Source: Sulfurimonas sp. (GTDB lineage: Bacteria > Campylobacterota > Campylobacteria > Campylobacterales > Sulfurimonadaceae). From it: DNA of 57,082 bases. Of the stretch, positions 8,667 through 54,509 are shown one piece after another. The stretch is from assembly GCF_028694895.1 (NCBI RefSeq), contig NZ_JAQVKA010000004.1:1-57082 (forward strand), in the 5' to 3' direction. Position 1 is the first letter of the stretch; every line of letters starts with the position of its first letter. A program made the position numbers and the translations under genes. The notes below the pieces were generated by a model that saw only the letters and a program-made list of their open reading frames with translations, made no database searches and was not told where the DNA came from.

Positions 8667-8669
8667 GAA

Positions 8670-14243: not shown

Positions 14244-14979
14244 AAAACTTCACCCTGAAGAGTTTGAACTAGAGTGTGCAACAGTTTGGAGCTTTAGAAG
14301 ACGTGGGAATTGGGCGACTCATAACTCAAAATATAGAGGAAATTGGGCACCTGAAGTTGTTCGTAATCTTATACTTAGATATTCACAAGAGAAAGATTGT
14401 TTGTTAGATCCGATGATTGGCGGAGGAACAACTGCTGTTGAGTGTAAACTTTTAAACCGTCGTCTTTTAGCCTTAGATATCAATCCAAACGCGATAGAAC
14501 TGACAAATAATGCGCTTAATTTTGAATGTGAATACAATCCTAGAATAAGAGTTGAGTTAAATGATGCTAGAAATTTGTCAATCTTAAAAGATGAAACAAT
14601 AGACTTCATTTTAAATCATCCACCTTATGCAGACATAATCAAGTATAGTGATAAAAAGATAGAAGAAGACCTATCAAATATACATGATTTAGAAAAGTTT
14701 TGTGATGAGATGGAAAAAGTTGCAAATGAGTTTTATAGAGTTTTGAAAAAAGATAAATATTGTGCAATCTTGATAGGCGATACTAGAAGAAATAAAATGT
14801 ATCAACCTATGGCTTTTATGGTGATGCAAAGATTTTTAAAAGTTGGTTTCGAGCTCAAAGAAGACATAATCAAACATCAACATAATTGTAAAGCTACAGG
14901 CTTTTGGGTAAACAAAAGTAAAGAAGCAAATTTTTTGCTTATTATGCATGAGCACCTTTTTGTATTTAAAAAGAGTTAG
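14230..14979 (+). CDS. DNA methyltransferase (amino-methyltransferase fold, HPPY motif), no endonuclease partner visible
   Basis: The 249-aa protein has an N-terminal RGNWATHNSKYRGNWAPEVV block (about residues 18-37), the AdoMet motif I DPMIGGGTTAVE (about residues 59-70), LALDINPNAIE (motif II), and LNHPPYADIIKYS (about residues 130-142) as catalytic motif IV. The order X-I-IV matches gamma-type N6-adenine or N4-cytosine DNA methylases. The residue before PPY is His rather than the usual Asp, Asn or Ser. The next gene is a helicase, so it is either an orphan methylase or the remnant of a restriction system. Recognition sequence is unknown. Confidence 0.82.
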   Translation: MAKIKKLHPEEFELECATVWSFRRRGNWATHNSKYRGNWAPEVVRNLILRYSQEKDCLLDPMIGGGTTAVECKLLNRRLLALDINPNAIELTNNALNFECEYNPRIRVELNDARNLSILKDETIDFILNHPPYADIIKYSDKKIEEDLSNIHDLEKFCDEMEKVANEFYRVLKKDKYCAILIGDTRRNKMYQPMAFMVMQRFLKVGFELKEDIIKHQHNCKATGFWVNKSKEANFLLIMHEHLFVFKKS

Positions 14980-38456: not shown

Positions 38457-38846
38457 ATGGAGCATATAGTGACTTCAAATCCGTATTTTGGGGTATTTGT
38501 ACTATTTCTTTTAACGTTTGGTGCATTTACAATGACAACGATAACGGCTCGTTTGGTGAGTCGTGCATTGGCGGCTAAGAGTAATGAAAAAATTAAATTG
38601 TCAGTTTATGAGTGTGGACCAGAGGTCACAAAACAACCAAATAGAATCTCTCCACAGTTTTATCTATTTGCACTACTCTTCTTACTTTTTGATGTAGAGA
38701 TTGTCTTTATGTTTCCGTGGGCAGTTGATTTTAAATTGCTAGGGTGGTTTGGTTTTGCTGAGATGTTAATGTTTATACTTCTTTTAACTATCGGTTTTGT
38801 TTATGCATGGAAAAAAGGAGCGCTAGAATGGCACAACATAAAGTAA
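38457..38846 (+). CDS. nuoA: NADH-quinone oxidoreductase subunit A
   Basis: This 129-aa membrane subunit has three predicted helices and the conserved [25 protein letters not shown]-type loop, whose YECG is part of the quinone-pocket linkage. The second half contains [15 protein letters not shown], typical of NuoA. It opens the complex I operon with an AGGTAGG site. It overlaps nuoB by 19 bases, with nuoB reading in another frame. Confidence 0.95.
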
Positions 38847-39337
38847 ATTACACACAAAATGGCGGTTTGCCAGTTGCACTTACGAGTATAGATAAAATTG
38901 TAAACTGGGGACGTTCAAACTCTATTTGGGCGCTTACTTACGGTCTTGCTTGTTGTGGTATCGAGATGATGGCTAGTGGTGCTTCAAGATATGACTTTGA
39001 TAGATTTGGAACGATTTTTAGAGCGTCTCCAAGACAAGCGGATGTTATGATAGTTGCTGGGACACTAACTAAAAAACATGCTGAGTTTATCAAAAGACTT
39101 TACGACCAGATGACTGAGCCAAAATGGGTTATATCTATGGGCTCATGCGCAAATACTGGCGGTATGTTTAACACTTATGCAACTGTTCAAGGTGTTGATA
39201 GAATTATACCTGTTGATTTGTATCTTCCAGGGTGTGCTCCACGTCCTGAGACTCTTCAGTATGGTGTGATGCTACTGCAGAAAAAAATACGTGCAAACAA
39301 AGCGTCTCGTGCGCAAGTAGCTAAAAGGTTGATGTAA
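38828..39337 (+). CDS. nuoB: NADH-quinone oxidoreductase subunit B
   Basis: From ATG 38828, with GGAG eight bases upstream inside nuoA, the product is 169 aa; the track start lacks a site. NuoB carries the last iron-sulfur cluster (N2) that gives electrons to quinone. Its ligands are visible in [19 protein letters not shown] and PGCAPRPE. It sits at the junction between the peripheral and membrane arms. nuoC starts one base after its stop. Confidence 0.96.
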
Positions 39338-39338
39338 T

Positions 39339-40145
39339 ATGAGAGCTTATAAACCTAAAGATAATGTACAAGCAAAAGCTTACTATACAGATAGATTTTA
39401 TGTATCTCCTCAAGTGCCAAAGAGCCCAGTTGAGAGTGATGAGATATTTGCTAAAGATTTAGAGGCAATAAAAGCAAACTTTACTGTGCTTGATGCATAT
39501 ATTCAAGTTGAGCAGATGGTTGTTTATATCAACCCGCAAGATAATTTTAAAGTTTTAAAACTCTTAAGAGATGAGTGCGAATATACACAACTCTCAGAGA
39601 TGAGCGCTATTGATTGGTTGGCAACTAGAGGCGGATTTGAAATCTTTTATCAGATGCTAAGTATGAATAAACGCAAGCGTATTCGTATCAAAATGTTCAT
39701 CAACAAAGGCGAGAGTGTAAACTCTGTTGAGAAGCTTTTTCGCTCTGCTGATTGGTCTGAGAGAGAGATGTTTGATATGTTTGGTATAGAAGCAAACGGA
39801 CATCCATTTATGAAAAGAATCCTTATGCCATATGATTGGCAAGGATTTCCACTTCTAAAAACTTATCCGCTTCAAGGTGATGAGTTTGCTGCTTGGTATG
39901 AAGTTGATAAGATTTATGGCAAAGAAGCAAGAGATATTATTGGGCCTGAACTTCGTGATAGTGCTAAGGTAGATAGATATGACTCTGAGCGATTTGCACG
40001 CCTTGGATACGAAGTTCCAAAAGGAACTGTGATTACTGGTAATGAGCCAAAAAATGAAGAGAACTACCAAGAAGAAGGTGGCGTGTTTATGATTAAGAAA
40101 TTTGATAAAAAAGATTCGGTCGTTGTTGACGATCCTCAAAGATAG
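39339..40145 (+). CDS. nuoC: NADH-quinone oxidoreductase subunit C
   Basis: The 268-aa protein has the 30-kDa subunit signature [26 protein letters not shown] (about residues 143-168) and [13 protein letters not shown]. It is longer than many NuoC proteins because of an N-terminal stretch of about 40 residues and a C-terminal tail past the core ([15 protein letters not shown]). It is not fused to NuoD, which follows after 14 bases. It helps frame the peripheral arm near the quinone site. Confidence 0.94.
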
Positions 40146-40159
40146 GTGGAAATAATAAT

Positions 40160-41398
40160 ATGCAAGTAACAAATAGATTAAACCCATTTTTTGAGAACAT
40201 TACCTTTGATAGAGAAGACAATGAGATGATTCTAAACTTTGGTCCGCAGCATCCATCAGCTCACGGACAACTTCGTCTTATGCTTCATCTTCAACAAGAG
40301 CAGATTACAAAAGCTCATCCAGATATTGGTTACCTTCACCGTGGTATGGAGAAGATGGCTGAGAATATGATTTATAATGAGTTTATGCCTACAACTGATC
40401 GTATGGACTATATTGCATCGTCTTCAAATAACTATGGATTTGCACTAGCTGTAGAGAAATTGATAGGTCTTGAAGTTCCTCGTCGTGCAAAAGTTATCCG
40501 TATGATGCTTCTTGAGATAAACCGTCTTATGAGTCACCTTTTCTGGTTAGCTACAACAGCACTTGATATCGGTGCTATGACAGTTTTTCTTTTTGCATTC
40601 CGCGAGAGAGAATACCTTATGGACATCATTGAGGGGTATTGTGGAGCTAGACTTACACATGCTGCTATTCGTATCGGTGGAGTCCCATTAGATATTCAAG
40701 ATACATTTATATCTCAACTAAAAACATTCCTAGATAAGCTTCCGCAAAATATTAAAGATTATGAGGATTTACTAGACACTAACCGTATCTGGCTTATGAG
40801 AATGGAAGATGTTGGAACAATATCTAAAGAGATGGCTCTTTCATGGGGCTGTACAGGTCCAATGTTACGTGCTAGTGGTGTTGCTTGGGATATCCGTAAA
40901 GAAGAGCCTTATGAGCTTTATGATGAAGTAGAATTTCGTGTGCCTTATTCTGATAAAGGTGATAACTTTGCAAGATACCGTATCTACATGGAAGAGATGA
41001 GAGAGTCTGCAAAGATTCTTCATCAAACAATAGATATGTATGAGAAATGTGTAAAAGACAATCAAACTGAGCTTATGGCTCACGCTCCAAAATATATTTC
41101 TGCACCAAAGCTAGATATCATGACTCAAAACTACTCTTTGATGCAACATTTTGTTTTAGTTACACAAGGTATGAGACCTCCGGTTGGCGAGGTTTATGTA
41201 GTTACTGAGTCACCAAAAGGAGAGCTTGGCTTTTTTATCAACTCTCAAGGTGGGCCATACCCATATAGACTAAAACTACGTGCTCCATCATTTTGGCACA
41301 CAGGGATTTTAACTGACCTTTTACCAGGTCATTACATCCCAGATGTTGTTTCAATTATTGGTACAACAAACATCGTATTTGGAGAGGTTGACCGATGA
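40160..41398 (+). CDS. nuoD: NADH-quinone oxidoreductase subunit D
   Basis: The 412-aa protein has [20 protein letters not shown] near residue 27, whose histidine lies by the quinone headgroup, [11 protein letters not shown], and the C-terminal [26 protein letters not shown]. It descends from NiFe hydrogenase large subunits but lacks the NiFe cysteines. The ATG has AGGTGG upstream. Its TGA overlaps the ATG of a 32-codon ORF that fills the gap to the next gene. Confidence 0.96.
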
Positions 41399-41493
41399 TA
41401 AATTTTAATAATTTATTCCTCATCGTTAGATGTAGCTTTAGTGATGGGAATTTTGCAAAGAATTCACTTCTTTGTAAAAGGAGACAAATATGA
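41395..41493 (+). CDS. Candidate 32-codon ORF bridging nuoD and the nuoE-position gene
   Basis: An ATG at 41395 overlaps the nuoD stop (ATGA) with GGAGAGG about ten bases upstream. The frame stays open for 32 codons ([13 protein letters not shown] ... KRRQI), and its TGA overlaps the ATG of the next gene, again as ATGA. It exactly fills the only sizeable gap in the operon. It may be a genuine small subunit, a coupling device, or chance. No family is recognised. Confidence 0.3.
41456..41474 (+). promoter_or_regulatory. Intercistronic hairpin before the nuoE-position gene
   Basis: CAAAGAA (41456-41462) and TTCTTTG (41468-41474) form a perfect seven-base stem with a TTCAC loop, directly before the AAAAGGAG ribosome binding site. 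It could act in transcript processing or set the translation level of the downstream genes. Confidence 0.4.
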
Positions 41494-41711
41494 AAAGATA
41501 TGATTTAAGACATTTAAAAGACGGTTTTGAACCTAGAATGAAAGAGATACTCTTGGCTCACAAAGCTGGAGAAGTTGCAATTTTTCTCTTTGAAATAGGA
41601 GATTTTTCTCCAATTCAAAGATCTGCAGATCTAGTAAAAGAGTGCGGGTATGAGTTGCTTAACTCTTTAAAATTTAACGAAGTCGACTGGACTATCGTTA
41701 CAAAAAAATAG
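41490..41711 (+). CDS. Small complex I protein at the NuoE position (HP1264-like)
   Basis: The 73-aa protein occupies the nuoE place but has none of the four cysteines that hold the 2Fe-2S cluster in NuoE; it has only one cysteine (KECGYEL). It resembles the short protein encoded at the same site in Helicobacter (HP1264) and Campylobacter, where ordinary NuoE and NuoF are missing. The sequence RYDLRHLKDGFEPRMKEIL suggests a small alpha/beta adaptor. It probably docks the following flavoprotein or an electron donor to the complex. A good AAAAGGAG site precedes it. Confidence 0.8.
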   Translation: MKRYDLRHLKDGFEPRMKEILLAHKAGEVAIFLFEIGDFSPIQRSADLVKECGYELLNSLKFNEVDWTIVTKK

Positions 41712-41725
41712 GCAGGGTTAAAATT

Positions 41726-43759
41726 TTGAGTAAAGTATATTTTTCTACTTGGAACGGTGAGTTTGTAAATAACATCAACACGCCGGTAGAGGAGTGGAAA
41801 GAGTCAGCTTACGACTTACCCGCACAGTATGATAGTCATCGTGAATCAAAAGCCTTTATAGGCTGGGACGGCGTTGCACTTTTTGATAAAAATGTAGACG
41901 TTATTCGCCTTGCTATGGAGTACGCAGCCCAGTATCAAGAGTATTCTGAAGCATGTGGAAGATGCGCACCTGGACGTTGGGGTGGCAGAATTCTATATGA
42001 TCAGCTTGATAAAATAGCTCGTGGTGAAGGTAGTATCGCTGATTTGGACCATTTAAGGGAGATTGGCAAAAGTATGCAAATCACTTCAAAATGTGAGATT
42101 GGAAAAACTGTTCCAAACCCTATTCTTGATTTGATGCAGCATTTTGAGCATGTATTTTTAGAGTGCATTAATGAGCAAAAACCATCAATCCACTATAGTG
42201 AATCTATAGCATATATAGCTAAGATTACGGCACCTTGTACAGATGCTTGTCCATCACATGTTGATATTCCTGCATATATTGAGGGTGTTAGAGATGTTAG
42301 AATGGATGATTCACTTATAGCGACTCGTCAAACAATGCCACTAGCGCATGTTTGCGGTCGTGTTTGTCCACATCCATGTGAAGACGCGTGTAGAAGAACA
42401 AACTTAGATGAACCTATCTCTATCATGGCGCTTAAACGTCTTGGAGCTGACTGGGAAACTGATCATGGTTATGATTTTTTTCATCCTATGGAGAAAAAGC
42501 CAAGTAACGGCAAGAGAGTTGCAGTTATAGGTGCTGGTCCTGCTGGACTTACTACCGCTTACTATCTTGGAGCTGAGGGTATTGCTGTTGATGTTTATGA
42601 AGAACTTCCAGTACTCGGCGGCGAGGTTGCTGTTGGTGTTCCAGAGTATAGAATGCCTATAGATAAATATAACAAAGATATAGATTGTGTAAAAGATATG
42701 GGTGTTAATTTTATAGTAAATTCTAAGATTAATGCTGATGATATGAGAAGATTTGAGAATGAATATGATGCAATTATGGTTGCAACAGGAACAAGAATAT
42801 CTAAAAAAGTCTATTGTGATAACGAAAGACCTGAGATTAAGGGTTACTGGGGTGCGATTGATTTCTTAGATAAAGTGAATCTTTATGAGAAGTATGGATA
42901 TACAATCTCTAAAGAAGAGCAAGAAGATAACCTACTTACTACTCCATATGTTGATTTAACTGGAAAGACACTTGTTTGTGTTGGTGGTGGATTTACATCC
43001 ATGGACGTTGTAAGATGCGCAATCAGAGCAAACGCTAAAAAAGTTTATATGATTTATCGTAGAGATGAGAAGACTATCATCAAAAATACAACTTATGAAG
43101 AGTATCACGAAGCAGTTGAAGAGGGTGTAGAGTTTCTTTTCCACTCAGCAGTTGCCGAGATGAGAGATGAAGATAATCTTTTAAAATCACTACTTGTAGA
43201 TAAGTTTGAGCTAGTTCCAGATCCAAATGGAGGACGAGCAGAGCTTGTTAAGATTGAGGGCGCTTCTTATGAGATAGAAGCGGATTATATTATCCCTGCA
43301 GTTTCACAATCAGCTGACTTGCAACTTCTTCCTGAAGAGTGGGAAATTGAGAAGACCTCTTGGGCTACTATTAAGACAAATGGTAGAGACTATATGACTT
43401 CAAGAAAAGGTATTTTTGCTTCTGGAGACTGTGAATATGGTCCGATGACAATTGTAAATGCAGTTGGGCAGGCAAAACGTGCATCTTCAGTTATGAGTAG
43501 ATATCTACAAAGCGGCGAAGTAACTCTTAGTGATGATGAGATTATGGAAGACCACTTAAGAAAATTAAGAGTTTATGATAAAAAAGAGAAAGTTACAGGT
43601 TGGATGGCTGGAATTCCACGAGAGCATGCCGAAGTCCTTGAAGTTGAAGATAGAAAACATAATAATAAAGAAGTAAACTTAGGCTTCACACAAGAAGAAG
43701 CTCTTGCTGAAGCAGAGCGCTGTATGCGCTGTTACTACATAGCAATGGTACAGGCGTAG
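41726..43759 (+). CDS. GltD-like FAD oxidoreductase with degenerate NuoF Fe-S domain, complex I input module
   Basis: The 677-aa protein starts at TTG with AGGG upstream. Residues 65-145 resemble the C-terminal iron-sulfur domain of NuoF, but the cluster reads CGRCAPG with Gly in place of the third cysteine (C77, C80 and C123 remain). Residues 170-225 carry a GltD-type cysteine set (CTDACPSHVD, VCGRVCPHPCEDAC). Then come an FAD Rossmann motif AVIGAGPAGLTTAYY (about residue 266) and a second dinucleotide motif CVGGGFTSMD with MIYRRDE, which favours NADPH in GltD. CMRCYY ends it. The FMN/NADH domain of NuoF is absent. It probably feeds electrons from NADPH or a ferredoxin/flavodoxin. Confidence 0.87.
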   Translation: MSKVYFSTWNGEFVNNINTPVEEWKESAYDLPAQYDSHRESKAFIGWDGVALFDKNVDVIRLAMEYAAQYQEYSEACGRCAPGRWGGRILYDQLDKIARGEGSIADLDHLREIGKSMQITSKCEIGKTVPNPILDLMQHFEHVFLECINEQKPSIHYSESIAYIAKITAPCTDACPSHVDIPAYIEGVRDVRMDDSLIATRQTMPLAHVCGRVCPHPCEDACRRTNLDEPISIMALKRLGADWETDHGYDFFHPMEKKPSNGKRVAVIGAGPAGLTTAYYLGAEGIAVDVYEELPVLGGEVAVGVPEYRMPIDKYNKDIDCVKDMGVNFIVNSKINADDMRRFENEYDAIMVATGTRISKKVYCDNERPEIKGYWGAIDFLDKVNLYEKYGYTISKEEQEDNLLTTPYVDLTGKTLVCVGGGFTSMDVVRCAIRANAKKVYMIYRRDEKTIIKNTTYEEYHEAVEEGVEFLFHSAVAEMRDEDNLLKSLLVDKFELVPDPNGGRAELVKIEGASYEIEADYIIPAVSQSADLQLLPEEWEIEKTSWATIKTNGRDYMTSRKGIFASGDCEYGPMTIVNAVGQAKRASSVMSRYLQSGEVTLSDDEIMEDHLRKLRVYDKKEKVTGWMAGIPREHAEVLEVEDRKHNNKEVNLGFTQEEALAEAERCMRCYYIAMVQA

Positions 43760-43771
43760 GAGATGGGTGCA

Positions 43772-46015
43772 ATGAAAAAAGAGATTAATTTCAAAATTAA
43801 TGGTATCTCAGTCGTTGCTTCTAGTGGTGAGACTATACTAACTGTTGCGCGTAAGAATGAAATCTATATCCCAACAATGTGTTATATCTCTAAAACTACT
43901 CCATGTGCATCTTGTCGTATGTGTGTTGTAGAAGCTAGTGGTATGGATGGCTTTGTACTTAGTTGTAACACTCCACCAGTTGAGGGCGTTGAGATAACAA
44001 CAGATAGCCAAGCACTAAATCATGAGAGAGTAAATATCATGAAGCTTTATGATGTAAACCATCCATTAGAGTGTGGCGTTTGTGATAAATCTGGAGATTG
44101 CGACCTTCAAAACAAAACTCTAGAGTTTAATGTTGAGCGTCAAAACTTCTCAGCTCGTGATCAACTCCGCCCAATAAAGCACTGGGGACTTATAGACTAT
44201 GAAGCATCGCTATGTATTATGTGTGAGAAATGTGTTCACGTATGTAATGAAGTTATCGGCGATGATGCTATTGAAGTAAAATTTGGTGGCTATAACTCTA
44301 TAATCATTCCAAAAAATTCTGAAGCGCTAGATTGTACTTTTTGTGGAGAGTGTATTGCAGTTTGCCCAGTTGGAGCACTTACTAGCAGTGGCTTTAGATA
44401 TAGAGCAAATGCGTGGGAGTTAGAGCGTATTCCTTCTACTTGTGCACACTGCTCAGCTGGATGTCCATTAGAGTATGAGACAAGACACGCCTCTATAAAT
44501 GGAGAAGATGAATTATATAGAGTTAAAAATAACTTTGAATTTACATCTCTTTGTGGAGCAGGACGTTTTGGCTTTGACTTTGAGAATAGAGCTTCAAGTG
44601 ATGAAGTGGCATTTAACAAAGCAATTCAAGCGTTACGTAGTGCTAAAGCTATTCGTTTTTCTTCAATGATTACAAATGAAGAGGCACACATACTAGAGCT
44701 CTTAAAAGCAAAACTAGGTGTAAAACTCTTCAATGAAGATGCAAGAAAGTTTGCTTCATTTATGCACTCATACAGCTCAATTAGTGGAAAACTACACCAT
44801 AGCGGTTCACTTGATGCTATAAAGCAATCAGACGCTGTTGTGATAATTGGAAGTAGAATTGCAACCGATAATCCAGGCGTTAGATACGCACTTACAACGG
44901 CTGCAAAACATAATGGTGCAAAGATAGTATATATGCACCCTATGGAAGATGCTTTGATGCAAAACGTTATAACTCAGATGATGAAGCATGAAGTAGGAAC
45001 AGAAGAGGGTGTTATAGCACTTTTAGCTAATTCTCTTTTGAGTGAAGCTTCACTTGATGAAGATGAGAGAGCGTTCTTTGATGAGTTAGACTTAGGATAT
45101 ATCTATGCTGAGACAAACATCGGAGAAGAGGAGTTCTCGCAGATGATGAAATCTTTTGCAAGAGCATCAAAGCGTACTCTAATAATTGGAAATGATATTA
45201 TCGCTCATGAGCGCTCAAGCAACATTGCAAAACTAGCAGCACTTATTGAAAAATATAGTGATTTTTCTATAGTTGTTGTTCCTCGTGATGTAAATACTCT
45301 AGGCGTATCACTTATAAACTCTTTAGATAAAGATGAAGATATATCTAACGTTGTTGGATATAACGCAAAAGGAGATTTTCTTATCTCTTCACTTGGGAGT
45401 GGAGATTTGGCAGTTGCAGCGCTTAATCAACAAGAGGGAACATTTGTAAGTATAGACAACAGAGTGCTTCCTACAAACGTTGCTTTAGCGTTTGATGGAT
45501 ATACCCTAAATGATATTGCAAAAGCATTTGATATAGTTAAAGATGAGACAATTGATTATACAAAAGAGTTAAACACAAATGCTGGCTTTAAGGGCATAGC
45601 TTTTGATGATTTAGAAAACTTTTTAGCTCCGCTTGGCGAAGATAACAGAGGTTATATACTTGATGAAGTAGAGTGCGCTTCTAATGGTAAGATTGAAGAA
45701 CTTGATGATATGCCGGAGTTTAATGGAACAATTATCTATCAGTGTGATCCAGTTCTTCAGTTTAACAACTACACTGCAAAAACTACACAACTACCAAAAG
45801 AGAACTTCTTAAGAGGTTCTGCGCAGTTTGCAGTTGCTGCAAAGATAAACGATGGAGACAAAGTTGAGATAAGTTATGGCTCAACAAAAATTACAAGAGA
45901 ATTTAAATTAGATAATGAACTTAAAGGAACTGTGGCGCTAAACCCTACATTTGATATTAGTGTAGATGCTAGTAGATACAGATTTGAAAAATCCAAAATA
46001 GTGAGAATAGTGTAA
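43772..46015 (+). CDS. nuoG: NADH-quinone oxidoreductase subunit G, copy 1
   Basis: From ATG 43772, nine bases after GGAG (the track's ATG 43763 abuts that site), the product is 747 aa. It has an N-terminal 2Fe-2S domain (PTMCYISKTTPCASCRMCVVEA ... LSCNTP), the NuoG-specific HPLECGVCDKSGDCDLQN, two 4Fe-4S motifs (CIMCEKCVHVC, CTFCGECIAVCP), and CAHCSAGCPLEYE leading into a degenerate molybdopterin-type domain with no catalytic ligand visible. It carries the electron chain between the input flavoprotein and NuoI/NuoB. The stop overlaps the start of a second nuoG (TAATG). Confidence 0.92.
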   Translation: MKKEINFKINGISVVASSGETILTVARKNEIYIPTMCYISKTTPCASCRMCVVEASGMDGFVLSCNTPPVEGVEITTDSQALNHERVNIMKLYDVNHPLECGVCDKSGDCDLQNKTLEFNVERQNFSARDQLRPIKHWGLIDYEASLCIMCEKCVHVCNEVIGDDAIEVKFGGYNSIIIPKNSEALDCTFCGECIAVCPVGALTSSGFRYRANAWELERIPSTCAHCSAGCPLEYETRHASINGEDELYRVKNNFEFTSLCGAGRFGFDFENRASSDEVAFNKAIQALRSAKAIRFSSMITNEEAHILELLKAKLGVKLFNEDARKFASFMHSYSSISGKLHHSGSLDAIKQSDAVVIIGSRIATDNPGVRYALTTAAKHNGAKIVYMHPMEDALMQNVITQMMKHEVGTEEGVIALLANSLLSEASLDEDERAFFDELDLGYIYAETNIGEEEFSQMMKSFARASKRTLIIGNDIIAHERSSNIAKLAALIEKYSDFSIVVVPRDVNTLGVSLINSLDKDEDISNVVGYNAKGDFLISSLGSGDLAVAALNQQEGTFVSIDNRVLPTNVALAFDGYTLNDIAKAFDIVKDETIDYTKELNTNAGFKGIAFDDLENFLAPLGEDNRGYILDEVECASNGKIEELDDMPEFNGTIIYQCDPVLQFNNYTAKTTQLPKENFLRGSAQFAVAAKINDGDKVEISYGSTKITREFKLDNELKGTVALNPTFDISVDASRYRFEKSKIVRIV

Positions 46016-48501
46016 TGAGTAAAATTACTATAAACATTGATGGAAAAGAGATACAAACACAAGAGGGCGAGTATATTTTAAATGCTGCTCGTGCTAATGA
46101 TATCTTTATACCAGCTATCTGTTATCTAAGTAGATGTAGTCCAACACTCGCGTGTAGACTATGTTTAGTTGAAGCAGATGGCAAACAAGTTTATGCATGT
46201 AACGCAAAGAGCAAAGAGGGAATGAGTGTTATTACTTCTACTGAAAACATCATAATAGAGCGCCGTGCAATCATGGAAGTGTATGATGTTAATCATCCTC
46301 TTGAGTGTGGTGTTTGTGATCAATCAGGAGAGTGTGAGCTTCAAAACTATACTTTAGAGATGGGCGTTGATAAGCAGCATTATGCAGTTAAAGACGTCGA
46401 TAGAAGTGATGTAGATTGGGGCCATATTCATTACAACCCAGGTCTTTGTATCGTATGTGAGAGATGTGTAACAACATGTAAAGATATGATAGGCGATAAC
46501 GCTCTAAAAACAGTTCCTCGTGGCGCTGATGCGCTTGAGGCTGAGTACAAAGAGAGTATGCCAAAAGACGCTTATGCGATGTGGAATAAACTAAATAAAT
46601 CTCTTATCGGTCTTACGAGCGGCGAAGAGATGCTTGATTGTACAAGTTGTGGCGAGTGTGCTGCTGTTTGTCCAGTTGGAGCGCTTGTTGATACTCACTA
46701 TATATATACTTCAAATGCTTGGGAGTGTGAGCAGATTCCAGCAACTTGTGGACACTGCTCGGCAGGATGTCAGATTAGCTATGATGTAAAACATACAAGT
46801 ATTGACAACACAGATACAAAGATTTATCGTGTTATGAATGAGTGGAACTATGTTGCACTATGTGGCGCTGGAAGATATGGTTTTGACTATCAAAATGTAG
46901 TGGATAAAAAAGATGAGAGTGCATTTAATGCAGCGATTGAAGCATTTAAAAAAGCAGACACTATTAAATTTACTTCAACTATTACAAATGAAGAGGCTTA
47001 TCTTCTTCAAGTTCTAAGAGATAAGTTCGGATATAAACTTGTAAACAATGAAGCAAAAGCATTTCAAACATTTTTAAATTACTATAGTGAGATTAGTGGT
47101 ACTAAGCTTTATGGTTATGATTTAGAAGCAACCCATAATGTTAACTTTGTTATCTCAGTTGGAACAGCTATTAAGAGCGATAATCCAAATGCAAGATACG
47201 CGTTAAATAACTCAATGACTGTAAATAAGGGTGCTGGACTATACTTCCATCCTTTAAAAGATCCTGTTATTGAAGGCCTTGGTAAAAGTATAATGACAAT
47301 GTATCACGCTCCACTTCAAGAAGAGATTGTTCTTTATCTAATCCTTGATCTGTTTGCAGATAAAGAGAAATTACCTTCAGAGATAGTTGATTACTTAGCA
47401 TCATTTCATACTAAAAAAACTATAACTGTTGAAGAGATAATCAAAGAAGAGATTACTGAAATAGTTAAAGTTATGAAGATAAATGAAGAGAGTGGTGAAG
47501 AAGAAGAGATTGAAGAAGAGAAGAAAAAAATAGTTCCTAAAAAAATCACAAAAGAAGTAGAAGTAGATGAAAATGCTCTTTTAGAGATTTTAGGTGCTAA
47601 TGAGAACTTTATGGAAGAGTTGGAGAAGAACTTAGCTAAAAAAGATAGTTTTGCTCTAATCGCTGGACCAGATTTATATACGCATCCAAATGCAAAAAAC
47701 CTTGCTCGTCTTTTAGCTCTGATTGAGAAGTATAGTGCGTTTGAAATTACAATGATTCCTACACTGACAAACTCACTTGGTGTTGCACTTATTTGTGAGC
47801 TTGATGATGAAGTAGGCTCTTATACTATCGGCTATAACACGAAAGGTGACTTTACACTCTCAGCTTTAGGTGATGGGGATTTGGATATGCCTTCTATTAA
47901 TCAGCAAGAGGGAACACTAACAAGCATAAATAAAAGAGTAAACCCAACAAATGCTGCAATTGGCTACAACGGATATGAACTTAATGACATCGCAAATGCT
48001 TTAGGCTTCAATGCAGAGAATGTAATAGAATATACAAAAATGCTTCCAACAAAGAGTGGATTTATCTCAAAAGAGTTTGATACGCTACCAAACCATTATG
48101 AGAATGATGGAACAGAGTGTCGTGGATACCTACTTGATAATGTTGCAGTTAAAAAATGTGGCGATGAGAGTGTAGAGAAGTTTAAAGAGACAAAACTCGA
48201 GGGAACTTTAATCTATATGGCAAATCCTGTTAGACAGTTCACTCCATTTACATATAAAACTACCAACCTTGATGAGGTAAGTGGTGTTTATATGAGTGAA
48301 GAGTTCTTGGCTAATTCTGATTTTAATGAAGGAGACATCGTGAGAGTAAAGAGTGCAAGCGGTGAACTAGTAGCAAATATAGTTAGTGATAACAAAATAA
48401 GCGGGGATATTATTGTTCTGCCGACTTTTGATTCTAAATTGAACTCAGAGGCACTGTTTAGCTCATACCGCTTTGCAACAGCTTCGATTGAAAGGGTGTA
48501 A
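46015..48501 (+). CDS. nuoG: NADH-quinone oxidoreductase subunit G, copy 2
   Basis: The 828-aa protein repeats the layout of copy 1: 2Fe-2S motif PAICYLSRCSPTLACRLCLVEA, HPLECGVCDQSGECELQN, CIVCERCVTTCKDM, CTSCGECAAVCPVGAL, CGHCSAGCQISYD, then a molybdopterin-oxidoreductase-like domain. It differs by a longer loop before the second 4Fe-4S motif and by a strongly charged insert of about 50 residues (VEEIIKEEITEIV ... EEEIEEEKKKIV, about residues 470-520). It starts on the last base of copy 1's stop. Two tandem NuoGs suggest either heteromeric use or different donors. Confidence 0.92.
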   Translation: MSKITINIDGKEIQTQEGEYILNAARANDIFIPAICYLSRCSPTLACRLCLVEADGKQVYACNAKSKEGMSVITSTENIIIERRAIMEVYDVNHPLECGVCDQSGECELQNYTLEMGVDKQHYAVKDVDRSDVDWGHIHYNPGLCIVCERCVTTCKDMIGDNALKTVPRGADALEAEYKESMPKDAYAMWNKLNKSLIGLTSGEEMLDCTSCGECAAVCPVGALVDTHYIYTSNAWECEQIPATCGHCSAGCQISYDVKHTSIDNTDTKIYRVMNEWNYVALCGAGRYGFDYQNVVDKKDESAFNAAIEAFKKADTIKFTSTITNEEAYLLQVLRDKFGYKLVNNEAKAFQTFLNYYSEISGTKLYGYDLEATHNVNFVISVGTAIKSDNPNARYALNNSMTVNKGAGLYFHPLKDPVIEGLGKSIMTMYHAPLQEEIVLYLILDLFADKEKLPSEIVDYLASFHTKKTITVEEIIKEEITEIVKVMKINEESGEEEEIEEEKKKIVPKKITKEVEVDENALLEILGANENFMEELEKNLAKKDSFALIAGPDLYTHPNAKNLARLLALIEKYSAFEITMIPTLTNSLGVALICELDDEVGSYTIGYNTKGDFTLSALGDGDLDMPSINQQEGTLTSINKRVNPTNAAIGYNGYELNDIANALGFNAENVIEYTKMLPTKSGFISKEFDTLPNHYENDGTECRGYLLDNVAVKKCGDESVEKFKETKLEGTLIYMANPVRQFTPFTYKTTNLDEVSGVYMSEEFLANSDFNEGDIVRVKSASGELVANIVSDNKISGDIIVLPTFDSKLNSEALFSSYRFATASIERV

Positions 48502-48504
48502 TAT

Positions 48505-49491
48505 ATGGAAATGGCATATTTTATAGAGACGATAATAAAAATAGTAGTTATTTTACTAGTATTCTCTGGCTTAGCTGGAATTGGTACTTACTTTGAGAGA
48601 AAAGTTCTAGCATTTATGCAGCGTCGTCTTGGGCCTGTAAACGTAGGTCCTTTTGGACTCTTACAAGTTGCCGCGGATGGTATCAAACTCTTTACTAAAG
48701 AGGATATTGTTCCAACAAACGTTGTTGGAAAAATCTTTAAGATAGCACCTGTAATTACAGCAGCAACAGCTTTTATGGCAGCTGCTGCAATTCCGTTTTT
48801 ACCGTCTTTTACACTTTTTGGATATGAAGTTCATCCAATAGTAGCAGATATAAACATTGGTATTTTATATATACTAGGAATCATGGGAGTTGGTCTTTAT
48901 GGTCCACTTCTTGGCGGTATGGCTTCTGCAAATAAGTTCTCACTTATCTCAGCTGCTCGTGGTGCTGCCGTATTTATCTCTTATGAGGTAGTAACTGGTC
49001 TTTCTATTTTAGCACCTATTATGATGGTTGGTTCTTTATCATTAGTTGATTTTAATGAGTATCAAGCAGATGGAATTACAAGCTGGATAGTATGGACTCA
49101 GCCTGTTGCATTTATTCTTTTTTGGATAGCAGCTTTTGCAGAGACAGGAAGAACACCATTTCACTTAATCGCAAATGATCATGAGATTATTGATGGATTT
49201 GGAACAGAGTATTCTGGTATGAGATGGGGACTGTTTTTTATCGGAGAGTATGCAAATATGTTCTTTATATCTTTTGTAATTGCACTACTTTTCTTAGGTG
49301 GATATGGTGATGGAAGCTTTTTAGGAGCAATTGGATTACTTCTTAAAGTTGCATTCTTCTTTTTCTTCTTCTTGTGGACTAGAGCGGCTTGGCCAGATAT
49401 TAGACCAGATCAACTTATGTGGTTGTGTTGGAAAGTTTTAATGCCAATAGCTATGATAAATATACTTATCACTGCTATTGTACTGATGTAA
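48505..49491 (+). CDS. nuoH: NADH-quinone oxidoreductase subunit H
   Basis: The 328-aa membrane subunit with about eight helices forms the quinone entry chamber. Conserved loops are ERKVLAFMQRRLGPVNVGPFGLLQ (about residues 31-54), DGIKLFTKEDIVP, AAFAETGRTPF and EIIDGFGTEYSGMRWGLFFIGEYA. A run of six phenylalanines (about residues 290-295) sits inside a membrane helix. It follows nuoG copy 2 after three bases. Confidence 0.95.
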   Translation: MEMAYFIETIIKIVVILLVFSGLAGIGTYFERKVLAFMQRRLGPVNVGPFGLLQVAADGIKLFTKEDIVPTNVVGKIFKIAPVITAATAFMAAAAIPFLPSFTLFGYEVHPIVADINIGILYILGIMGVGLYGPLLGGMASANKFSLISAARGAAVFISYEVVTGLSILAPIMMVGSLSLVDFNEYQADGITSWIVWTQPVAFILFWIAAFAETGRTPFHLIANDHEIIDGFGTEYSGMRWGLFFIGEYANMFFISFVIALLFLGGYGDGSFLGAIGLLLKVAFFFFFFLWTRAAWPDIRPDQLMWLCWKVLMPIAMINILITAIVLM

Positions 49492-49501
49492 GGGGGTAGA
49501 G

Positions 49502-50137
49502 ATGCATAACGAAAATATTGAACAACATTTTAATAATAGAAATGTAACTGAAATTAATAGCGATTACTTTATGGTGGATATCGCAGACTATCCAACAGAT
49601 GGATGGGGTAAATTTACAAGAACACTAAGAAGAGCACTCAGAGGCGAACTCTTTGTAGGTCTTTGGGTAGTTCTTCGTGAGATGATTAGATTTGATATTC
49701 ATACGATTCAGTATCCTCTTGAGAAGATGCCAATTGGACCAAGATACAGAGCTGTTCATGAGATGAAGAGACTTTGGGAGTCTGATGCTGAGAGATGTAT
49801 TGGTTGTGGTCTTTGTGAGAAGATTTGTATCTCAAACTGTATTAGAATAGATACAAGATTAGATGAAGAGTCTCGCAAAGAAGTAACAGAGTACAGTATT
49901 AACTTAGGTCGTTGTATCTTTTGTGGATATTGCGCGGAAGTTTGTCCAGAACTTGCAATTACGCATGGTGGCGAATATGAGAATGCAAGTGATCAAAGAG
50001 AACACTTTATTATGTACCAAGATATGCTTACACCTTTTGATACGATGAAAGCAGGAACTCAAGTAGAGTTTGAAGGTTTTGGTGCAATTACACCACATGA
50101 AGATGAGCGTGTTAAAAAAACACCTCTAGCTTATTAA
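49502..50137 (+). CDS. nuoI: NADH-quinone oxidoreductase subunit I
   Basis: The 211-aa protein has two 4Fe-4S ferredoxin motifs, CIGCGLCEKICISNC (about residues 100-114) and CIFCGYCAEVCPE (about residues 139-151), which hold clusters N6a and N6b. An N-terminal extension of about 40 residues precedes the conserved TLRRALRGELFVGLWVVL amphipathic helix that lies on the membrane. It links NuoG to NuoB in the electron chain. A GGGGG-like site precedes the ATG. Confidence 0.95.
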   Translation: MHNENIEQHFNNRNVTEINSDYFMVDIADYPTDGWGKFTRTLRRALRGELFVGLWVVLREMIRFDIHTIQYPLEKMPIGPRYRAVHEMKRLWESDAERCIGCGLCEKICISNCIRIDTRLDEESRKEVTEYSINLGRCIFCGYCAEVCPELAITHGGEYENASDQREHFIMYQDMLTPFDTMKAGTQVEFEGFGAITPHEDERVKKTPLAY

Positions 50138-50148
50138 GGAGTTTAGTT

Positions 50149-50721
50149 ATGTTTGAAGCAATTGCATTTTACCTTTTCGCTTTTTTAACGATTGCAATGT
50201 TCTATATTACGGTAACAACGTCACAAGCGTTGTATGCCCTCTCAGCACTTGCAGCAGGAATGATTTTTATATCAGCGTTTTTCTTTATTTTGGGTGCTGA
50301 CTTTTTAGGTGCCGTTCAAATAATAGTATATTCTGGTGCTGTTATGGCCCTTTATGCTTTTGGAATGATGTTCTTTGATACTACAAGAGATGTAAAAGAG
50401 AAACAAGGCAATAAAGCAATAATTATTGGACTTAGCTCTTTAGCAGCACTTTTAGTAGTTGTCATTGTTTCAGCTCCAATAGTTGGCAACAATGTTGAGG
50501 CATTCTATCCAATGGTAGAGGGTGCAGGAAACACTCAAGAAGTTGGTATGGTTCTTTTTACAAAGTATTTGGTACCTTTTGAAGTGGCTGCAGTTATGCT
50601 ACTTGTAGCGATGATTGCTGGAATTGTTCTTGCAGGAAAGAAGATGGATTTATCTCTTACTCTTATGAGCGATTCGGAACTTATGAATATGAAAGAAGAA
50701 GATAAAAAGGTTAACGTATGA
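50149..50721 (+). CDS. nuoJ: NADH-quinone oxidoreductase subunit J
   Basis: The 190-aa protein has five predicted membrane helices, with the conserved FLGAVQIIVYSGAVMALYAFGMMF (about residues 49-72) containing the pi-bulge helix of ND6/NuoJ that takes part in coupling quinone reduction to proton pumping. Its TGA overlaps the nuoK ATG (ATGA). Confidence 0.94.
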   Translation: MFEAIAFYLFAFLTIAMFYITVTTSQALYALSALAAGMIFISAFFFILGADFLGAVQIIVYSGAVMALYAFGMMFFDTTRDVKEKQGNKAIIIGLSSLAALLVVVIVSAPIVGNNVEAFYPMVEGAGNTQEVGMVLFTKYLVPFEVAAVMLLVAMIAGIVLAGKKMDLSLTLMSDSELMNMKEEDKKVNV

Positions 50722-51026
50722 TGGAAATTGGATTAAATCACTATCTTGTACTCTCAACTATACTTTTTGCTATAGGTTTAGTTGGAGTTATGAGAAGAAA
50801 AAATCTACTTATGCTCTTTTTTGCAACAGAGATACTCTTAAATGCAGTAAATATATCTTTTGCTGCGATATCTCACTATTATGGTGATTTAACTGGCCAA
50901 ATGTTCGCATTTTTTGTAATAGCAATTGCTGCATCAGAAGTTGCTGTAGGACTTGGGCTTTTAATTGTTTGGCATAAAAAACATAACAATATAGACCTAG
51001 ACAATATGTCAAGTATGAGAGGATAA
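50718..51026 (+). CDS. nuoK: NADH-quinone oxidoreductase subunit K
   Basis: The 102-aa protein has three helices with the two membrane glutamates in place: FFATEILLNAVNISF (about residue 36) and AIAASEVAVGLGLLIVW (about residue 72). These are essential for proton transfer in NuoK/ND4L. It starts at the overlap ATGATG; the second ATG is an equal candidate. Confidence 0.94.
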   Translation: MMEIGLNHYLVLSTILFAIGLVGVMRRKNLLMLFFATEILLNAVNISFAAISHYYGDLTGQMFAFFVIAIAASEVAVGLGLLIVWHKKHNNIDLDNMSSMRG

Positions 51027-51029
51027 GAT

Positions 51030-52952
51030 ATGGAACTATTTTTATATACAGCACTTTTCTCTCCACTAGTAGGTTCTTTGTTTGCAGCACTTTTTGGGGC
51101 TTCACCAAAGATAAAAATAGCTGGAATAGTGCCAAGTGCACTTCTTGGAGTATCTCTATTTAGTAGTACGATGCTACTAATACTAGTATTTACAACAGAT
51201 ATTACTCTTCATGTTGAGATGATGACATGGATAGCTACGGGAGATTTATATATTCCTTTTGGTTTTGTAGTTGATCAGGTCAGCGTTGTCATGATGATGG
51301 TTGTAACACTTGTTTCAACTGTTGTTCATGTCTATGCTATTGGCTATATGGAAAATGATAAAGGCTTTAACCGTTTCTTCTCTTGGTTATCAGCATTCGT
51401 ATTTTCTATGATGGTTCTTGTTATGAGCGACAACTTTGCTGGTCTTTTTATAGGTTGGGAAGGCGTTGGTCTATGTTCATGGGGACTTATTGGTTTTTGG
51501 TATAAAAAAGAGAGTGCTACATGGGCTGCTAATGAAGCGTTCATTATGAACCGTATTGCTGACCTTGCAATGTTGATTGGTATCTTCTTAGTTTATTGGA
51601 ATACAGGAACACTTCAGTATTACGCTGCTTTTACTGCAATGCCATCTTTAGACAGTGCAATTCTTGTATGGATGGGTATATTTTTATTTATCGGAGCGAT
51701 GGGTAAATCTGCACAGTTTCCACTTCATACTTGGCTCGCAGATGCGATGGAAGGACCTACTCCAGTTTCGGCTTTAATTCACGCTGCTACAATGGTTACA
51801 GCTGGTGTTTACCTTGTTGTTCGTGCAAGTCCACTATATGATTTAATCCCTAGTGTAGGGCTTTTTATTGCAAGTTTAGGAGCATTTGTTGCTCTTTTTG
51901 CAGCATCTATGGCACTAGTTAACCGTGATATGAAAAGAGTTATTGCATACTCTACGCTATCACAACTAGGGTATATGTTTGCAGCTGCTGGGCTTGGAGC
52001 TTACTGGGTTGCACTTTTTCATCTTATGGCTCATGCATTCTTTAAAGCGCTTCTATTTTTGGGTGCAGGAAACGTAATGCACGCTATGCATGATGAGTTA
52101 GATCCATTTAAAATGGGTGGACTTAACAAAGTAATGAAGGGCACATTTGTTATGATGACTGTCGCTTCAGTAGCACTTGCAGGAATCTTTCCACTTGCTG
52201 GATTCTTCTCAAAAGATTTGATTCTAGAGGTGGCTTTTGTTGAGAACCATTATATTATCTACTCAGTTTTACTCTTTACTGCAGGTTTAACAGCGTTTTA
52301 CTCATTTAGACTTGTTGCACTTATTTTCCACGGTGAAGAGAGATATAAACTCTTTGGTATTCATCCACATGAAGCACATAAATTTATGTTAGTTGCTATG
52401 AGCCCACTTCTTTTACTTGCAGTTATTGCAGGGTCATTTAAGATGACATATTTTGAGATGGTTACAAAAGTACTTCCAGAATTAGAGTATCACATTCACC
52501 ATCCAATAACATTTTGGATTATGACTATTGGAACTCAACTCTTTGTTGCTGGTGCAATTCTTTATGCATATAAAAAATATACAAGTAGAGAGATTAAAGT
52601 GCCAGATGGAACATCTAAGATGGAGAATAGCTTTGGTTATAAACTTCTTATTAACCAATACTACATTCCATATTTTTATGAAGAGTATCTAGTTAAGGCA
52701 TATAGAGAGCTCTCAGATGTTTTATGGACAAAAGTAGATCAAAAAGTCGTAGATGGAACTGTTGATGGTATAGCAAATATACTCTATAACACAGGAGATA
52801 CAACAAGAGTTATGCAAAGCGGTAATCTATCAACCATGTTAAAATGGATGGTAGCAGGAACAGTTGCGTTACTATCATTAGCGGTAGTCTTTGGACTAGC
52901 GGCTAGATATTCTGGAGAAATAAAGATATTTCTCTCAGGTTTAGGAGTTTAA
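51030..52952 (+). CDS. nuoL: NADH-quinone oxidoreductase subunit L
   Basis: The 640-aa subunit is the distal antiporter-like proton pump with about 15-16 helices and the long lateral helix near the C-terminus. Conserved blocks are GWEGVGLCSWGLIGFWY (about residue 137) with the key Glu, and LHTWLADAMEGPTPVSALIHAATMVTAG (about residues 229-256) with Lys and His of the channel. KRVIAYSTLSQLGYM follows. It starts three bases after nuoK's stop. Confidence 0.95.
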   Translation: MELFLYTALFSPLVGSLFAALFGASPKIKIAGIVPSALLGVSLFSSTMLLILVFTTDITLHVEMMTWIATGDLYIPFGFVVDQVSVVMMMVVTLVSTVVHVYAIGYMENDKGFNRFFSWLSAFVFSMMVLVMSDNFAGLFIGWEGVGLCSWGLIGFWYKKESATWAANEAFIMNRIADLAMLIGIFLVYWNTGTLQYYAAFTAMPSLDSAILVWMGIFLFIGAMGKSAQFPLHTWLADAMEGPTPVSALIHAATMVTAGVYLVVRASPLYDLIPSVGLFIASLGAFVALFAASMALVNRDMKRVIAYSTLSQLGYMFAAAGLGAYWVALFHLMAHAFFKALLFLGAGNVMHAMHDELDPFKMGGLNKVMKGTFVMMTVASVALAGIFPLAGFFSKDLILEVAFVENHYIIYSVLLFTAGLTAFYSFRLVALIFHGEERYKLFGIHPHEAHKFMLVAMSPLLLLAVIAGSFKMTYFEMVTKVLPELEYHIHHPITFWIMTIGTQLFVAGAILYAYKKYTSREIKVPDGTSKMENSFGYKLLINQYYIPYFYEEYLVKAYRELSDVLWTKVDQKVVDGTVDGIANILYNTGDTTRVMQSGNLSTMLKWMVAGTVALLSLAVVFGLAARYSGEIKIFLSGLGV

Positions 52953-52955
52953 CAT

Positions 52956-54509
52956 ATGCTAGATCATATATTATCAATTTTAGTTTTCTTTCCAGCCCTA
53001 GCAGGTATCCTTGGATTTGTGGTTAACAAAAATAGCATACGTTCTTATGGTGTAGCTGTTGCTACAATCGAGTTTGGACTTGCAATCTGGTTATGGTTTG
53101 CGTTTGACTCAAACGTATCTGGAATGCAGTTTATGGAACAAATTGCACTAGTTCCAGCATTTGGTATCAACTATATAGTTGGTGTGGATGGAGTTTCGCT
53201 CTTTATTGTCATTCTAGCTGCATTCTTTACCATGATAGGTATTGCTTCACTTGGAGAGATGAAGGACATCAAAAATCTAATCATTACACTTCTGTTTTTA
53301 CAGATGACTATGGTTGGTGTGTTTGTTGCGCTTGATGCTATTGTGTTTTATCTCTTTTGGGAGTTATCTCTTGTGCCGATGCTATATATCATTGGTGCGT
53401 GGGGTGGACCGCTTAGAATCTATGCTTCTGTTAAGTTTTTCCTATATACATTTGCAGGTTCACTTGTAATGTTAGTAGGTATGTTATTTATGGCATATTT
53501 TTATTATCAAGCAACAGGAGAGTGGAGTTTTGCACTTCTTGATTGGTACCGTCTGATACTTCCTGAATCATTTCAAAACTGGCTCTTTGTTGCCTTTTTC
53601 TTTGGTTTTGCTATCAAAGTTCCAATGTTTCCATTTCATACATGGTTACCATACGCTCATGGTCAAGCACCTACTATTGGTTCGGTAATACTTGCGGCAA
53701 TCCTTTTAAAAATGGGTACATACGCATTTATACGTTTCTCTTTACCGCTTTTCCCAGATGCGTCAGTTTACTTTATGTATCCAATAGCAGTACTAGCTAT
53801 CATTATGATTATCTATACTGCAATGGTTGCTTACGCTCAAAAAGATATTAAGCAAGTTGTTGCTTACTCATCTGTATCGCACATGGGTGTAATTATTCTT
53901 GGTACATTCGCACTTAACGTTGAAGGTATTACAGGTTCAATCTTTTTAATGATTGCGCACGGTGTAGTTTCGGGTGCTCTGTTCTTTCTTGTTGGTGTAA
54001 TTTATGATAGAAGACATACGAAGATTATGAGTGAGTTTGGAGGACTAGCTTCAGTTATGCCTCGTTATGCAACCATCTTTGGAATCATGCTTATGGCTTC
54101 GGTTGGTCTGCCTCTTACGATAAACTTTATTGGAGAGTTTTTAAGTTTACTCGGCTTTTACAAGCAGTCACATATACTAACTCTTCTTGCAGGAACTGCA
54201 ATCATTGTTGGAGCTATTTATATGCTTAGTGCTTATAAGAAGATGTTTTTTGGAGAAGTTACACATGAAGAGAATAGAAATCTTCCAGATGTAAACAAAA
54301 AAGAGCTATTAGCGCTTATCCCATTAACGATTATTACTATCTGGCTTGGTGTATATCCAAAAGTGCTTTTAGAGCCAATTAACAAAAGTGTAGAAGGGAT
54401 TGTTACTTTAATGCATGAAAAATCTATAACCCAAGAAGCAAAATTAAGAATACCAAATGTCAATAAGGACATGGGTCTTATAACTAAACCAGAAAGGGAG
54501 GCACACTAA
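52956..54509 (+). CDS. nuoM: NADH-quinone oxidoreductase subunit M
   Basis: The 517-aa antiporter-like subunit has about 14 helices, with [18 protein letters not shown] (key Glu near residue 132), [30 protein letters not shown] (about residues 227-256) and [13 protein letters not shown]. It lies between NuoL and NuoN in the membrane arm. Its stop overlaps the nuoN ATG by one base (TAATG). Confidence 0.95.

What the first reader, a model, noticed from the sequence alone, without database searches (positions are those of the whole stretch)
41490..43759. Complex I without NuoE/NuoF: input taken over by a 73-aa protein and a GltD-like flavoprotein
The NuoE-position protein has no 2Fe-2S cysteines. 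The next gene joins a degenerate NuoF iron-sulfur segment (CGRCAPG, third ligand lost) to a full GltD-type FAD/NADPH-like module. The FMN/NADH domain is absent. Known: Helicobacter and Campylobacter lack NuoE/F and feed complex I by other donors such as flavodoxin. Here the fused GltD module suggests NADPH, or a bifurcating or reverse electron route that makes reduced carriers for autotrophy.
Basis: partly seen in the sequence, partly recalled or inferred. Interest (0 to 1): 0.66.

Follow-up and report, generated by a model that had tools for sequence, protein, structure and literature searches.

The report
Complex I with NADPH-enzyme-like input arm
In this sulfur-oxidising bacterium and its relatives, the part of respiratory complex I that normally takes electrons from NADH is replaced by a fused flavoprotein that looks built for NADPH, together with a second copy of subunit NuoG; the unexplained replacement gene in Campylobacter- and Helicobacter-type relatives turns out to be the leftover half of that second NuoG.

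Summary
The window lies in a Sulfurimonadaceae (Campylobacterota) genome. Its complete nuo operon has, in the E and F slots, a 73-aa protein (PF16514, the FMN-binding HP1264 family) and a 677-aa fusion: the C-terminal iron-sulfur (N3) domain of NuoF joined to a full GltD/NfnL-type FAD-NADPH module. The NuoF FMN/NADH domain is absent from the protein, from this genome, and from 18 of 20 near-complete genomes that carry the fusion. The lost third N3 ligand is Gly in every homologue, so it is a conserved feature, not decay.

New here: the fusion occurs in most Campylobacterota families and, wherever readable, with a second full NuoG (NuoG1). Where the fusion is missing (Campylobacter-, Helicobacter-, Sulfurospirillum- and most Arcobacter-type genomes), NuoG1 is a stub without iron-sulfur motifs: the 'NuoY' (Cj1574c) position gene. 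The losses happened more than once.

Best explanation: fusion plus NuoG1 form an NADP(H) arm on a low-potential complex I, probably run in reverse (menaquinol to NADPH) in rTCA autotrophs. Domains, ligands and co-loss are shown; NADPH specificity and direction are inferred; bifurcation is possible but unsupported. I found no paper describing this arm, but key genome papers were not readable. New variant of a known kind.

The parts
38457..41398 (+). nuoA (38457-38846), nuoB (38807-39337), nuoC (39339-40145), nuoD (40160-41398): upstream part of the same operon
   Evidence: ORFs and spacing; nuoC and nuoD by Pfam; nuoA and nuoB by order and reading of the sequence
41490..41711 (+). 73-aa protein in the NuoE slot ('NuoX', HP1264/Cj1575c family, PF16514), expected to bind FMN; no conserved cysteine
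   Evidence: PF16514 1.9e-37; 2LXR 2.9e-21; FMN binding of HP1264 published (PMC6269979); 71-sequence alignment
41726..43759 (+). 677-aa fusion protein in the NuoF slot (N3-type NuoF domain + GltD/NfnL-type FAD-NADP(H) module)
41945..42160 (+). NuoF C-terminal N3 iron-sulfur domain (aa 74-145): C77, C80, C123 kept, third ligand replaced by invariant Gly83 (codon 41972-41974)
   Evidence: PF10589 68 bits; alignment to HydB/NfnB/NuoF; invariance
42221..43756 (+). GltD/NfnL-type module (aa 166-677): clusters C171, C175, C666, C669 and C210, C214, C218, C222; FAD motif from G269; second Rossmann fold GGGFTSMD with YRR (R445, R446); R309 in the place of P. furiosus NfnL Arg201
43763..46015 (+). nuoG1, 750 aa, second NuoG with N1b, N5, two Fer4 and N7 motifs; found with the fusion in every locus where it could be read
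46015..48501 (+). nuoG2, 828 aa, orthologue of the single NuoG of relatives without the fusion
   Evidence: PRK08493 1197 bits; tree
48505..56017 (+). nuoH, I, J, K, L, M, N: complete membrane arm and NuoI
   Evidence: ORFs; NuoI Fer4 domains; others by order and reading

Best explanation
The 677-aa protein and NuoG1 together form an NADP(H)-reactive input/output arm on the low-potential (flavodoxin/ferredoxin-type) complex I of Campylobacterota. The NuoF N3 domain is kept as the dock to NuoG1, while the FMN/NADH domain of NuoF was swapped for a GltD/NfnL module. Proposed path: NADP(H) - FAD - two [4Fe-4S] clusters of the GltD module - altered N3-type site (three Cys) - NuoG1 clusters - NuoG2/NuoI/NuoB - menaquinone. 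In this rTCA autotroph it most likely runs in reverse, with the proton-motive force pushing electrons from menaquinol up to NADP+. The 73-aa FMN protein and the NuoG1 C-terminal domain form a separate, older flavodoxin/ferredoxin entry point; that is why they alone remain in lineages that lost the arm. Shown here: domains, ligands, absence of NuoE/F, co-retention and co-loss with the NuoG1 iron-sulfur half. Inferred: physical assembly, NADPH rather than NADH, direction of flow.
For: GltD module by Pfam, phmmer and Foldseek; the best solved relatives are NADP(H) enzymes: NfnA/StnC, NfnL (5jca, NADP(H)-bound), GltD and DPD. All eight GltD cluster cysteines, FAD motif glycines and the YRR motif are invariant in 24 homologues from ten family groups (ligands and RR also in 48 close ones). 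NuoF N3 domain kept. Fusion present means a full NuoG1 with cluster motifs (21 readable loci plus the window; one G1, L143, deviates in the Fer4/N7 motif scan). Fusion absent means only a cluster-free C-terminal stub (17 of 17). Trees need repeated losses. This is the only GltD-type protein in the genome. No PntB, no RnfC above cut-off, and no NuoF FMN domain, so few other routes to reduced pyridine nucleotides are visible. ATP-citrate lyase is present.
Against: No biochemistry. The NADPH preference rests on a motif whose role I recall from DPD and on the named relatives; the stretch after YRR (IIKNTT instead of MPAR) differs from Nfn/Stn. The third N3 ligand is missing, so the relay may be broken or altered. 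The AlphaFold2 model is poor (pLDDT 64.9; the cluster region 167-251 is below 50). Fifteen fusion genomes in family f2 lack ATP-citrate lyase and five in f10 have it without the fusion, so the arm is not tied strictly to autotrophy.
Confidence: 0.57

Rival explanations
1. The arm bifurcates or confurcates electrons, like NfnL/Stn. The FAD of the GltD module splits electrons of NADPH between ferredoxin (low branch) and the complex I chain to menaquinone (high branch), or joins them in reverse, so that the complex supplies reduced ferredoxin for the rTCA cycle.
For: Closest solved relatives are bifurcating NfnA/StnC and NfnL. R309 sits at the position of P. furiosus NfnL Arg201, said in PMC7483475 to tune the bifurcating flavin, and is invariant. 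Both NfnL-type clusters are complete. The host needs reduced ferredoxin for rTCA (ATP-citrate lyase found).
Against: None of these features is specific for bifurcation. The second flavin partner of Nfn/Stn (NfnS or a NuoF with FMN) is missing. With the proton-motive force available, plain reverse transport is simpler.
Confidence: 0.18
2. The GltD module reacts with NADH (or both pyridine nucleotides), so the complex is an NADH:menaquinone oxidoreductase with a new NADH domain.
For: No other NADH input to quinone by NuoF was found; the sequence after the YRR motif departs from Nfn/Stn.
Against: The invariant YRR and the homology to NADPH-specific enzymes (GltD, NfnL, DPD) point to NADPH.
Confidence: 0.13
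3. The fusion is an NADP(H):flavodoxin/ferredoxin exchange unit: it trades electrons with reduced ferredoxin or flavodoxin at complex I and has little electron flow to quinone of its own.
For: Relatives of this complex use flavodoxin or ferredoxin (PMC4178425, PMC4585668); a flavodoxin-family protein is in the genome.
Against: The coupled loss of the NuoG1 Fe-S half suggests a wired path into the complex rather than a side activity.
Confidence: 0.09
4. The module is a structural remnant with no redox role.
For: Third N3 ligand lost.
Against: All cluster and cofactor residues are invariant across ten family groups, and the gene is lost cleanly rather than decaying.
Confidence: 0.03

Closest known systems
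Epsilonproteobacterial complex I ('eNuo', nuoXY type) of C. jejuni, H. pylori and Sulfurospirillum multivorans (PMC4178425, PMC6682613, PMC4585668)
   Same: Same operon order, same 73-76-aa FMN-binding protein in the E slot, no NuoE/NuoF, and an orthologous NuoG (G2)
   Different: Those have only a cluster-free ~230-340-aa stub in the F slot, which is the C-terminal half of NuoG1. Here a GltD fusion plus a complete second NuoG are present.
StnABC / NfnABC electron-bifurcating transhydrogenases (8oh5, 9bov, 9n5u; PMC7483475)
   Same: Best sequence and structure match for the GltD module, including the RCxxC cluster motif placed after the module; NuoF- and NuoG-type parts combined with GltD
   Different: There GltD is inserted into the NuoG-like subunit and a full NuoF with FMN/NAD site plus a NuoE are kept; soluble. 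Here GltD is fused to the NuoF N3 domain, with no FMN/NAD domain, inside a complete proton-pumping nuo operon.
NfnL / GltD (5jca, 4ylf, 6s6s)
   Same: FAD, NADP(H) fold, two [4Fe-4S] clusters
   Different: Stand-alone subunits of soluble enzymes; here fused to a NuoF domain in a complex I operon
Canonical NuoE/NuoF of complex I (2fug and others)
   Same: N3 iron-sulfur domain of NuoF
   Different: No FMN/NADH domain, no NuoE thioredoxin fold, one N3 cysteine replaced by Gly
Nitrospina/Kuenenia NUO-2 with altered NuoF2 and NuoG2 (PMC3578206)
   Same: Modified complex I input proposed for reverse electron flow in an rTCA autotroph
   Different: There NuoF2 keeps an NADH-type domain without FMN and gains ferredoxin clusters; no GltD fusion is described in the passages read

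Membership tests
Canonical NuoF (NADH-binding 51-kDa subunit) | Complex1_51K FMN/NADH domain (PF01512) | tested here: not met
   Not among the Pfam hits of the protein; not in the genome
Canonical NuoF (NADH-binding 51-kDa subunit) | N3 domain with four Cys ligands | tested here: not met
   Domain present (PF10589) but the third ligand is Gly83 in all 24 + 48 homologues
Canonical NuoE | Thioredoxin-like [2Fe-2S] domain with four Cys (PF01257) | tested here: not met
   73-aa protein is PF16514 and has no conserved Cys
HP1264 / PF16514 ('NuoX') | Profile match over the full length, in the nuoE slot | tested here: met
   1.9e-37, positions 1-74 of 74; operon position
HP1264 / PF16514 ('NuoX') | FMN binding | not testable with these tools
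   Published for HP1264 only (PMC6269979)
GltD/NfnL-type flavoprotein | FAD Rossmann motif, second nucleotide-binding fold, two [4Fe-4S] ligand sets | tested here: met
   Pfam, alignment to 5jca_L and 4ylf_B, invariance
GltD/NfnL-type flavoprotein | NADPH specificity | tested here: inconclusive
   YRR motif invariant, but the following segment differs from Nfn/Stn; no assay
Stn/NfnABC bifurcating transhydrogenase | NuoF-type subunit with flavin and NAD site plus NuoE-type subunit | tested here: not met
   Neither is present in the operon or genome
Stn/NfnABC bifurcating transhydrogenase | Electron bifurcation | not testable with these tools
   R309 conserved, which is not diagnostic
Campylobacterota eNuo complex I | nuoA-N operon with PF16514 in place of nuoE and no nuoF | tested here: met
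Campylobacterota eNuo complex I | Short 'NuoY' (Cj1574c/HP1265-type) protein in the nuoF slot | tested here: not met
   The fusion and full NuoG1 stand there instead; the short protein matches the NuoG1 C-terminal half

The most novel reading that the evidence does not exclude
A proton-pumping complex I that uses NADP(H), possibly bifurcating between ferredoxin and menaquinone at a GltD-type FAD, is the ancestral form in Campylobacterota. The flavodoxin-driven complex I of Campylobacter and Helicobacter is a repeatedly derived, stripped version of it.
Probability: 0.22. Interest if true: 0.85.

Novelty: new variant of a known kind. Interest (0 to 1): 0.6.

Why it matters
How rTCA-cycle Campylobacterota, major primary producers at vents and sulfidic redox zones, lift electrons from sulfide or hydrogen to NAD(P)H and ferredoxin is unsettled. 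This gives a concrete, conserved enzyme to test. It also offers an origin for Cj1574c/HP1265, the unexplained 'NuoF replacement' of Campylobacter and Helicobacter: a NuoG remnant rather than a new donor-binding protein. An NADP(H)-linked complex I would change how energy budgets of these bacteria are drawn.

Tried and rejected
(1) Canonical nuoEF elsewhere: searched and not found here nor in 18 of 20 near-complete fusion genomes; the two exceptions are 548-583-aa frames, longer than canonical NuoF and possibly hydrogenase-type (not followed up). (2) The PF01257 hit on C92 as a NuoE: rejected; it is a 134-aa ferredoxin-like protein with no nuo neighbours, sub-cut-off. (3) The fusion as an assembly or frameshift artefact: rejected; same architecture in 80 of 298 genomes and in named isolates. 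(4) The fusion as the GltD of glutamate synthase: rejected; it sits in the nuo operon and is the only GltD-type protein in the genome. (5) AlphaFold2 to place the cofactors: model too weak to use; Foldseek on it only repeats the sequence result. (6) Extra Fer4 cluster in NuoG as a novelty: dropped, since Aquifex NuoG (7q5y) shows the same second motif. (7) Literature: S. denitrificans, Sulfurovum/Nitratiruptor and S. gotlandica genome papers and the C. jejuni flavodoxin paper were not held, so an earlier mention of the fusion there cannot be excluded. (8) Occurrence of the fusion outside Campylobacterota could not be tested: the one genome-wide scan used narrow peptides and kept only the best 80 hits.

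Full report
WHERE. The window is contig C153 of a genome of 1.89 Mb, 159 contigs, 91.7% complete. Named relatives at about 76-93% identity are mostly Sulfurimonas, then Sulfuricurvum, MAGs and isolates. The nuo operon runs 38457-56017 in the order A B C D - 73 aa - 677 aa - G1 - G2 - H I J K L M N, nearly without gaps. A, B, H, J, K, L, M and N were read by order and sequence, not by a profile search.

THE 73-AA PROTEIN. It is a full-length PF16514 match, 2.9e-21 to H. pylori HP1264 (2LXR). HP1264 is published as FMN-binding, with an IF3/TusA-like fold and no conserved Cys (PMC6269979). Some genomes in family f2 encode a protein one residue different from 2LXR over the 74 residues aligned. PF16514 is in 242 of 298 sampled genomes of the phylum and in none of 14 control genomes. 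It is therefore a phylum-wide subunit, not a peculiarity of this locus.

THE 677-AA PROTEIN. Residues 26-156 align with the C-terminal N3 part of NuoF/HydB/NfnB, without the FMN/NADH and SLBB domains. Residues 166-677 are a complete GltD/NfnL module. In StnC/NfnA-type relatives, as here, the RCxxC cluster motif lies after the module; in NfnL it lies before it. Conserved in all of 24 diverse homologues from ten family groups: C77, C80, G83 (where NuoF has Cys), C123-E124, C171, C175, C210, C214, C218, C222, C666, C669, R309 and the YRR motif; the same residues are invariant in 48 closer ones. So the N3-type site has three cysteines by design. Whether it holds a [4Fe-4S] with a non-Cys ligand, a [3Fe-4S], or nothing cannot be told from sequence. 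That Arg/Lys at the YRR position bind the NADPH 2'-phosphate in DPD is my recollection of the literature, not a test.

NO CANONICAL NuoE/F. PF01512 is absent from this genome and from 18 of 20 near-complete genomes that carry the fusion, most of them single contigs. Two carry one long (548-583 aa) match, which may be a hydrogenase-type NuoF homologue (not followed up). The fusion is the only PF14691 protein here. PntB is absent. RnfC matches are all below cut-off. Flavodoxin-family proteins are present.

THE SECOND NuoG AND THE STUB. I fetched 40 nuo regions across the phylum and read the genes in them. With the fusion, the order is 73 aa - fusion - NuoG1 (668-813 aa) - NuoG2. Without it, the order is 73 aa - protein of 231-339 aa - NuoG. 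A profile of the 17 short proteins hits NuoG1 residues 349-527 and 639-747 with 213 bits, NuoG2 with 53 bits and the 677-aa protein not at all. So the gene in the position of Cj1574c/HP1265 is the C-terminal half of NuoG1, with every iron-sulfur motif removed. All 21 readable fusion loci and the window have a full NuoG1; L143's G1 fails my regular expressions for Fer4/N7. All 17 loci without the fusion have only the stub (15 of the stubs also match NuoG1 one by one above 40 bits; the other two, L119 and L129, are assigned by position and by the joint profile). In the NuoG tree, NuoG1 is one side of a single branch (SH-aLRT 100) and NuoG2 is orthologous to the single NuoG. Genomes without the fusion nest among genomes with it in families f2 and f7 and in the f3+f10 group. 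In a second tree the stubs of f7 and f2 sit with NuoG1 of their own family; supports are moderate and several branches long, but starred branches force at least two changes. The simplest reading is an ancestral two-NuoG complex with the fusion, followed by repeated joint loss of the fusion gene and of the NuoG1 iron-sulfur half. That joint loss is the best evidence that the fusion feeds NuoG1. Horizontal transfer of the fusion into some lineages is not excluded.

LINK TO AUTOTROPHY. ATP-citrate lyase (PF16114) and the fusion co-occur in 62 genomes; 18 have the fusion only, 14 the lyase only, 204 neither (Fisher p about 1e-33, not corrected for relatedness). Within f7, the three fusion genomes are the only ones with a strong lyase match. 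Exceptions: 15 f2 and 2 f6 genomes have the fusion without the lyase; 5 f10 and 7 f5 genomes have the lyase without the fusion. So the arm fits autotrophs best but is not restricted to them.

MODEL. Relatives without the arm run this complex on flavodoxin (C. jejuni, PMC4178425) or ferredoxin (proposed for S. multivorans, PMC4585668). A 2019 review treats the phylum as having nuoXY in place of nuoEF, and the passages I read do not mention a GltD fusion (PMC6682613). I propose that the fusion and NuoG1 add an NADP(H) branch. In a sulfur oxidiser that feeds electrons in at the quinone level, it would mainly work backwards, making NADPH at the expense of the proton-motive force. Bifurcation would be attractive for making ferredoxin, and the nearest structures are bifurcating, but the residues I can check do not distinguish it.

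LIMITS. The AlphaFold2 model was poor. The genome is a draft. Occurrence outside the phylum and earlier mention in unread genome papers remain open.

Noticed in passing
L119, L120, L122, L123, L127-L132, L135, L137, L139, L141, L145-L147 (loci without the fusion): The 231-339-aa gene behind the 73-aa protein, in the position of Cj1574c/HP1265, is the C-terminal half of a second NuoG with all Fe-S motifs lost.
   Followed up: yes
L126 (G167), about 8481-10850: NuoG2 is split into two ORFs, 309 aa with all cluster motifs and 537 aa without, close to the boundary where NuoG1 was cut in other lineages. Genome length 2,110,355 suggests Wolinella succinogenes (from memory).
   Followed up: partly
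L125 (G286) and relatives of genus g42: The fusion protein frame is 895-966 aa, about 250 residues longer than elsewhere; the extra part was not examined.
   Followed up: no
Genomes of family f5 (G004, G006, G028, G039, G040, G086, G224): ATP-citrate lyase is present, but neither PF16514 nor the fusion was listed; these rTCA autotrophs must use another complex I input.
   Followed up: no
G208 (C59:14032 and C9:1134): Two copies of the 73-aa PF16514 protein in one genome, and no fusion match listed.
   Followed up: no
window genome G000: No GltD-type protein other than the nuo fusion, so any glutamate synthase here would lack a usual small subunit (draft genome).
   Followed up: partly
window 10404-14979: DNA adenine methylase-like gene, an AIPR-like protein, a nuclease-like protein and a second DNA methyltransferase-like gene in a row: looks like a restriction or phage-defence island (read by eye only).
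   Followed up: no
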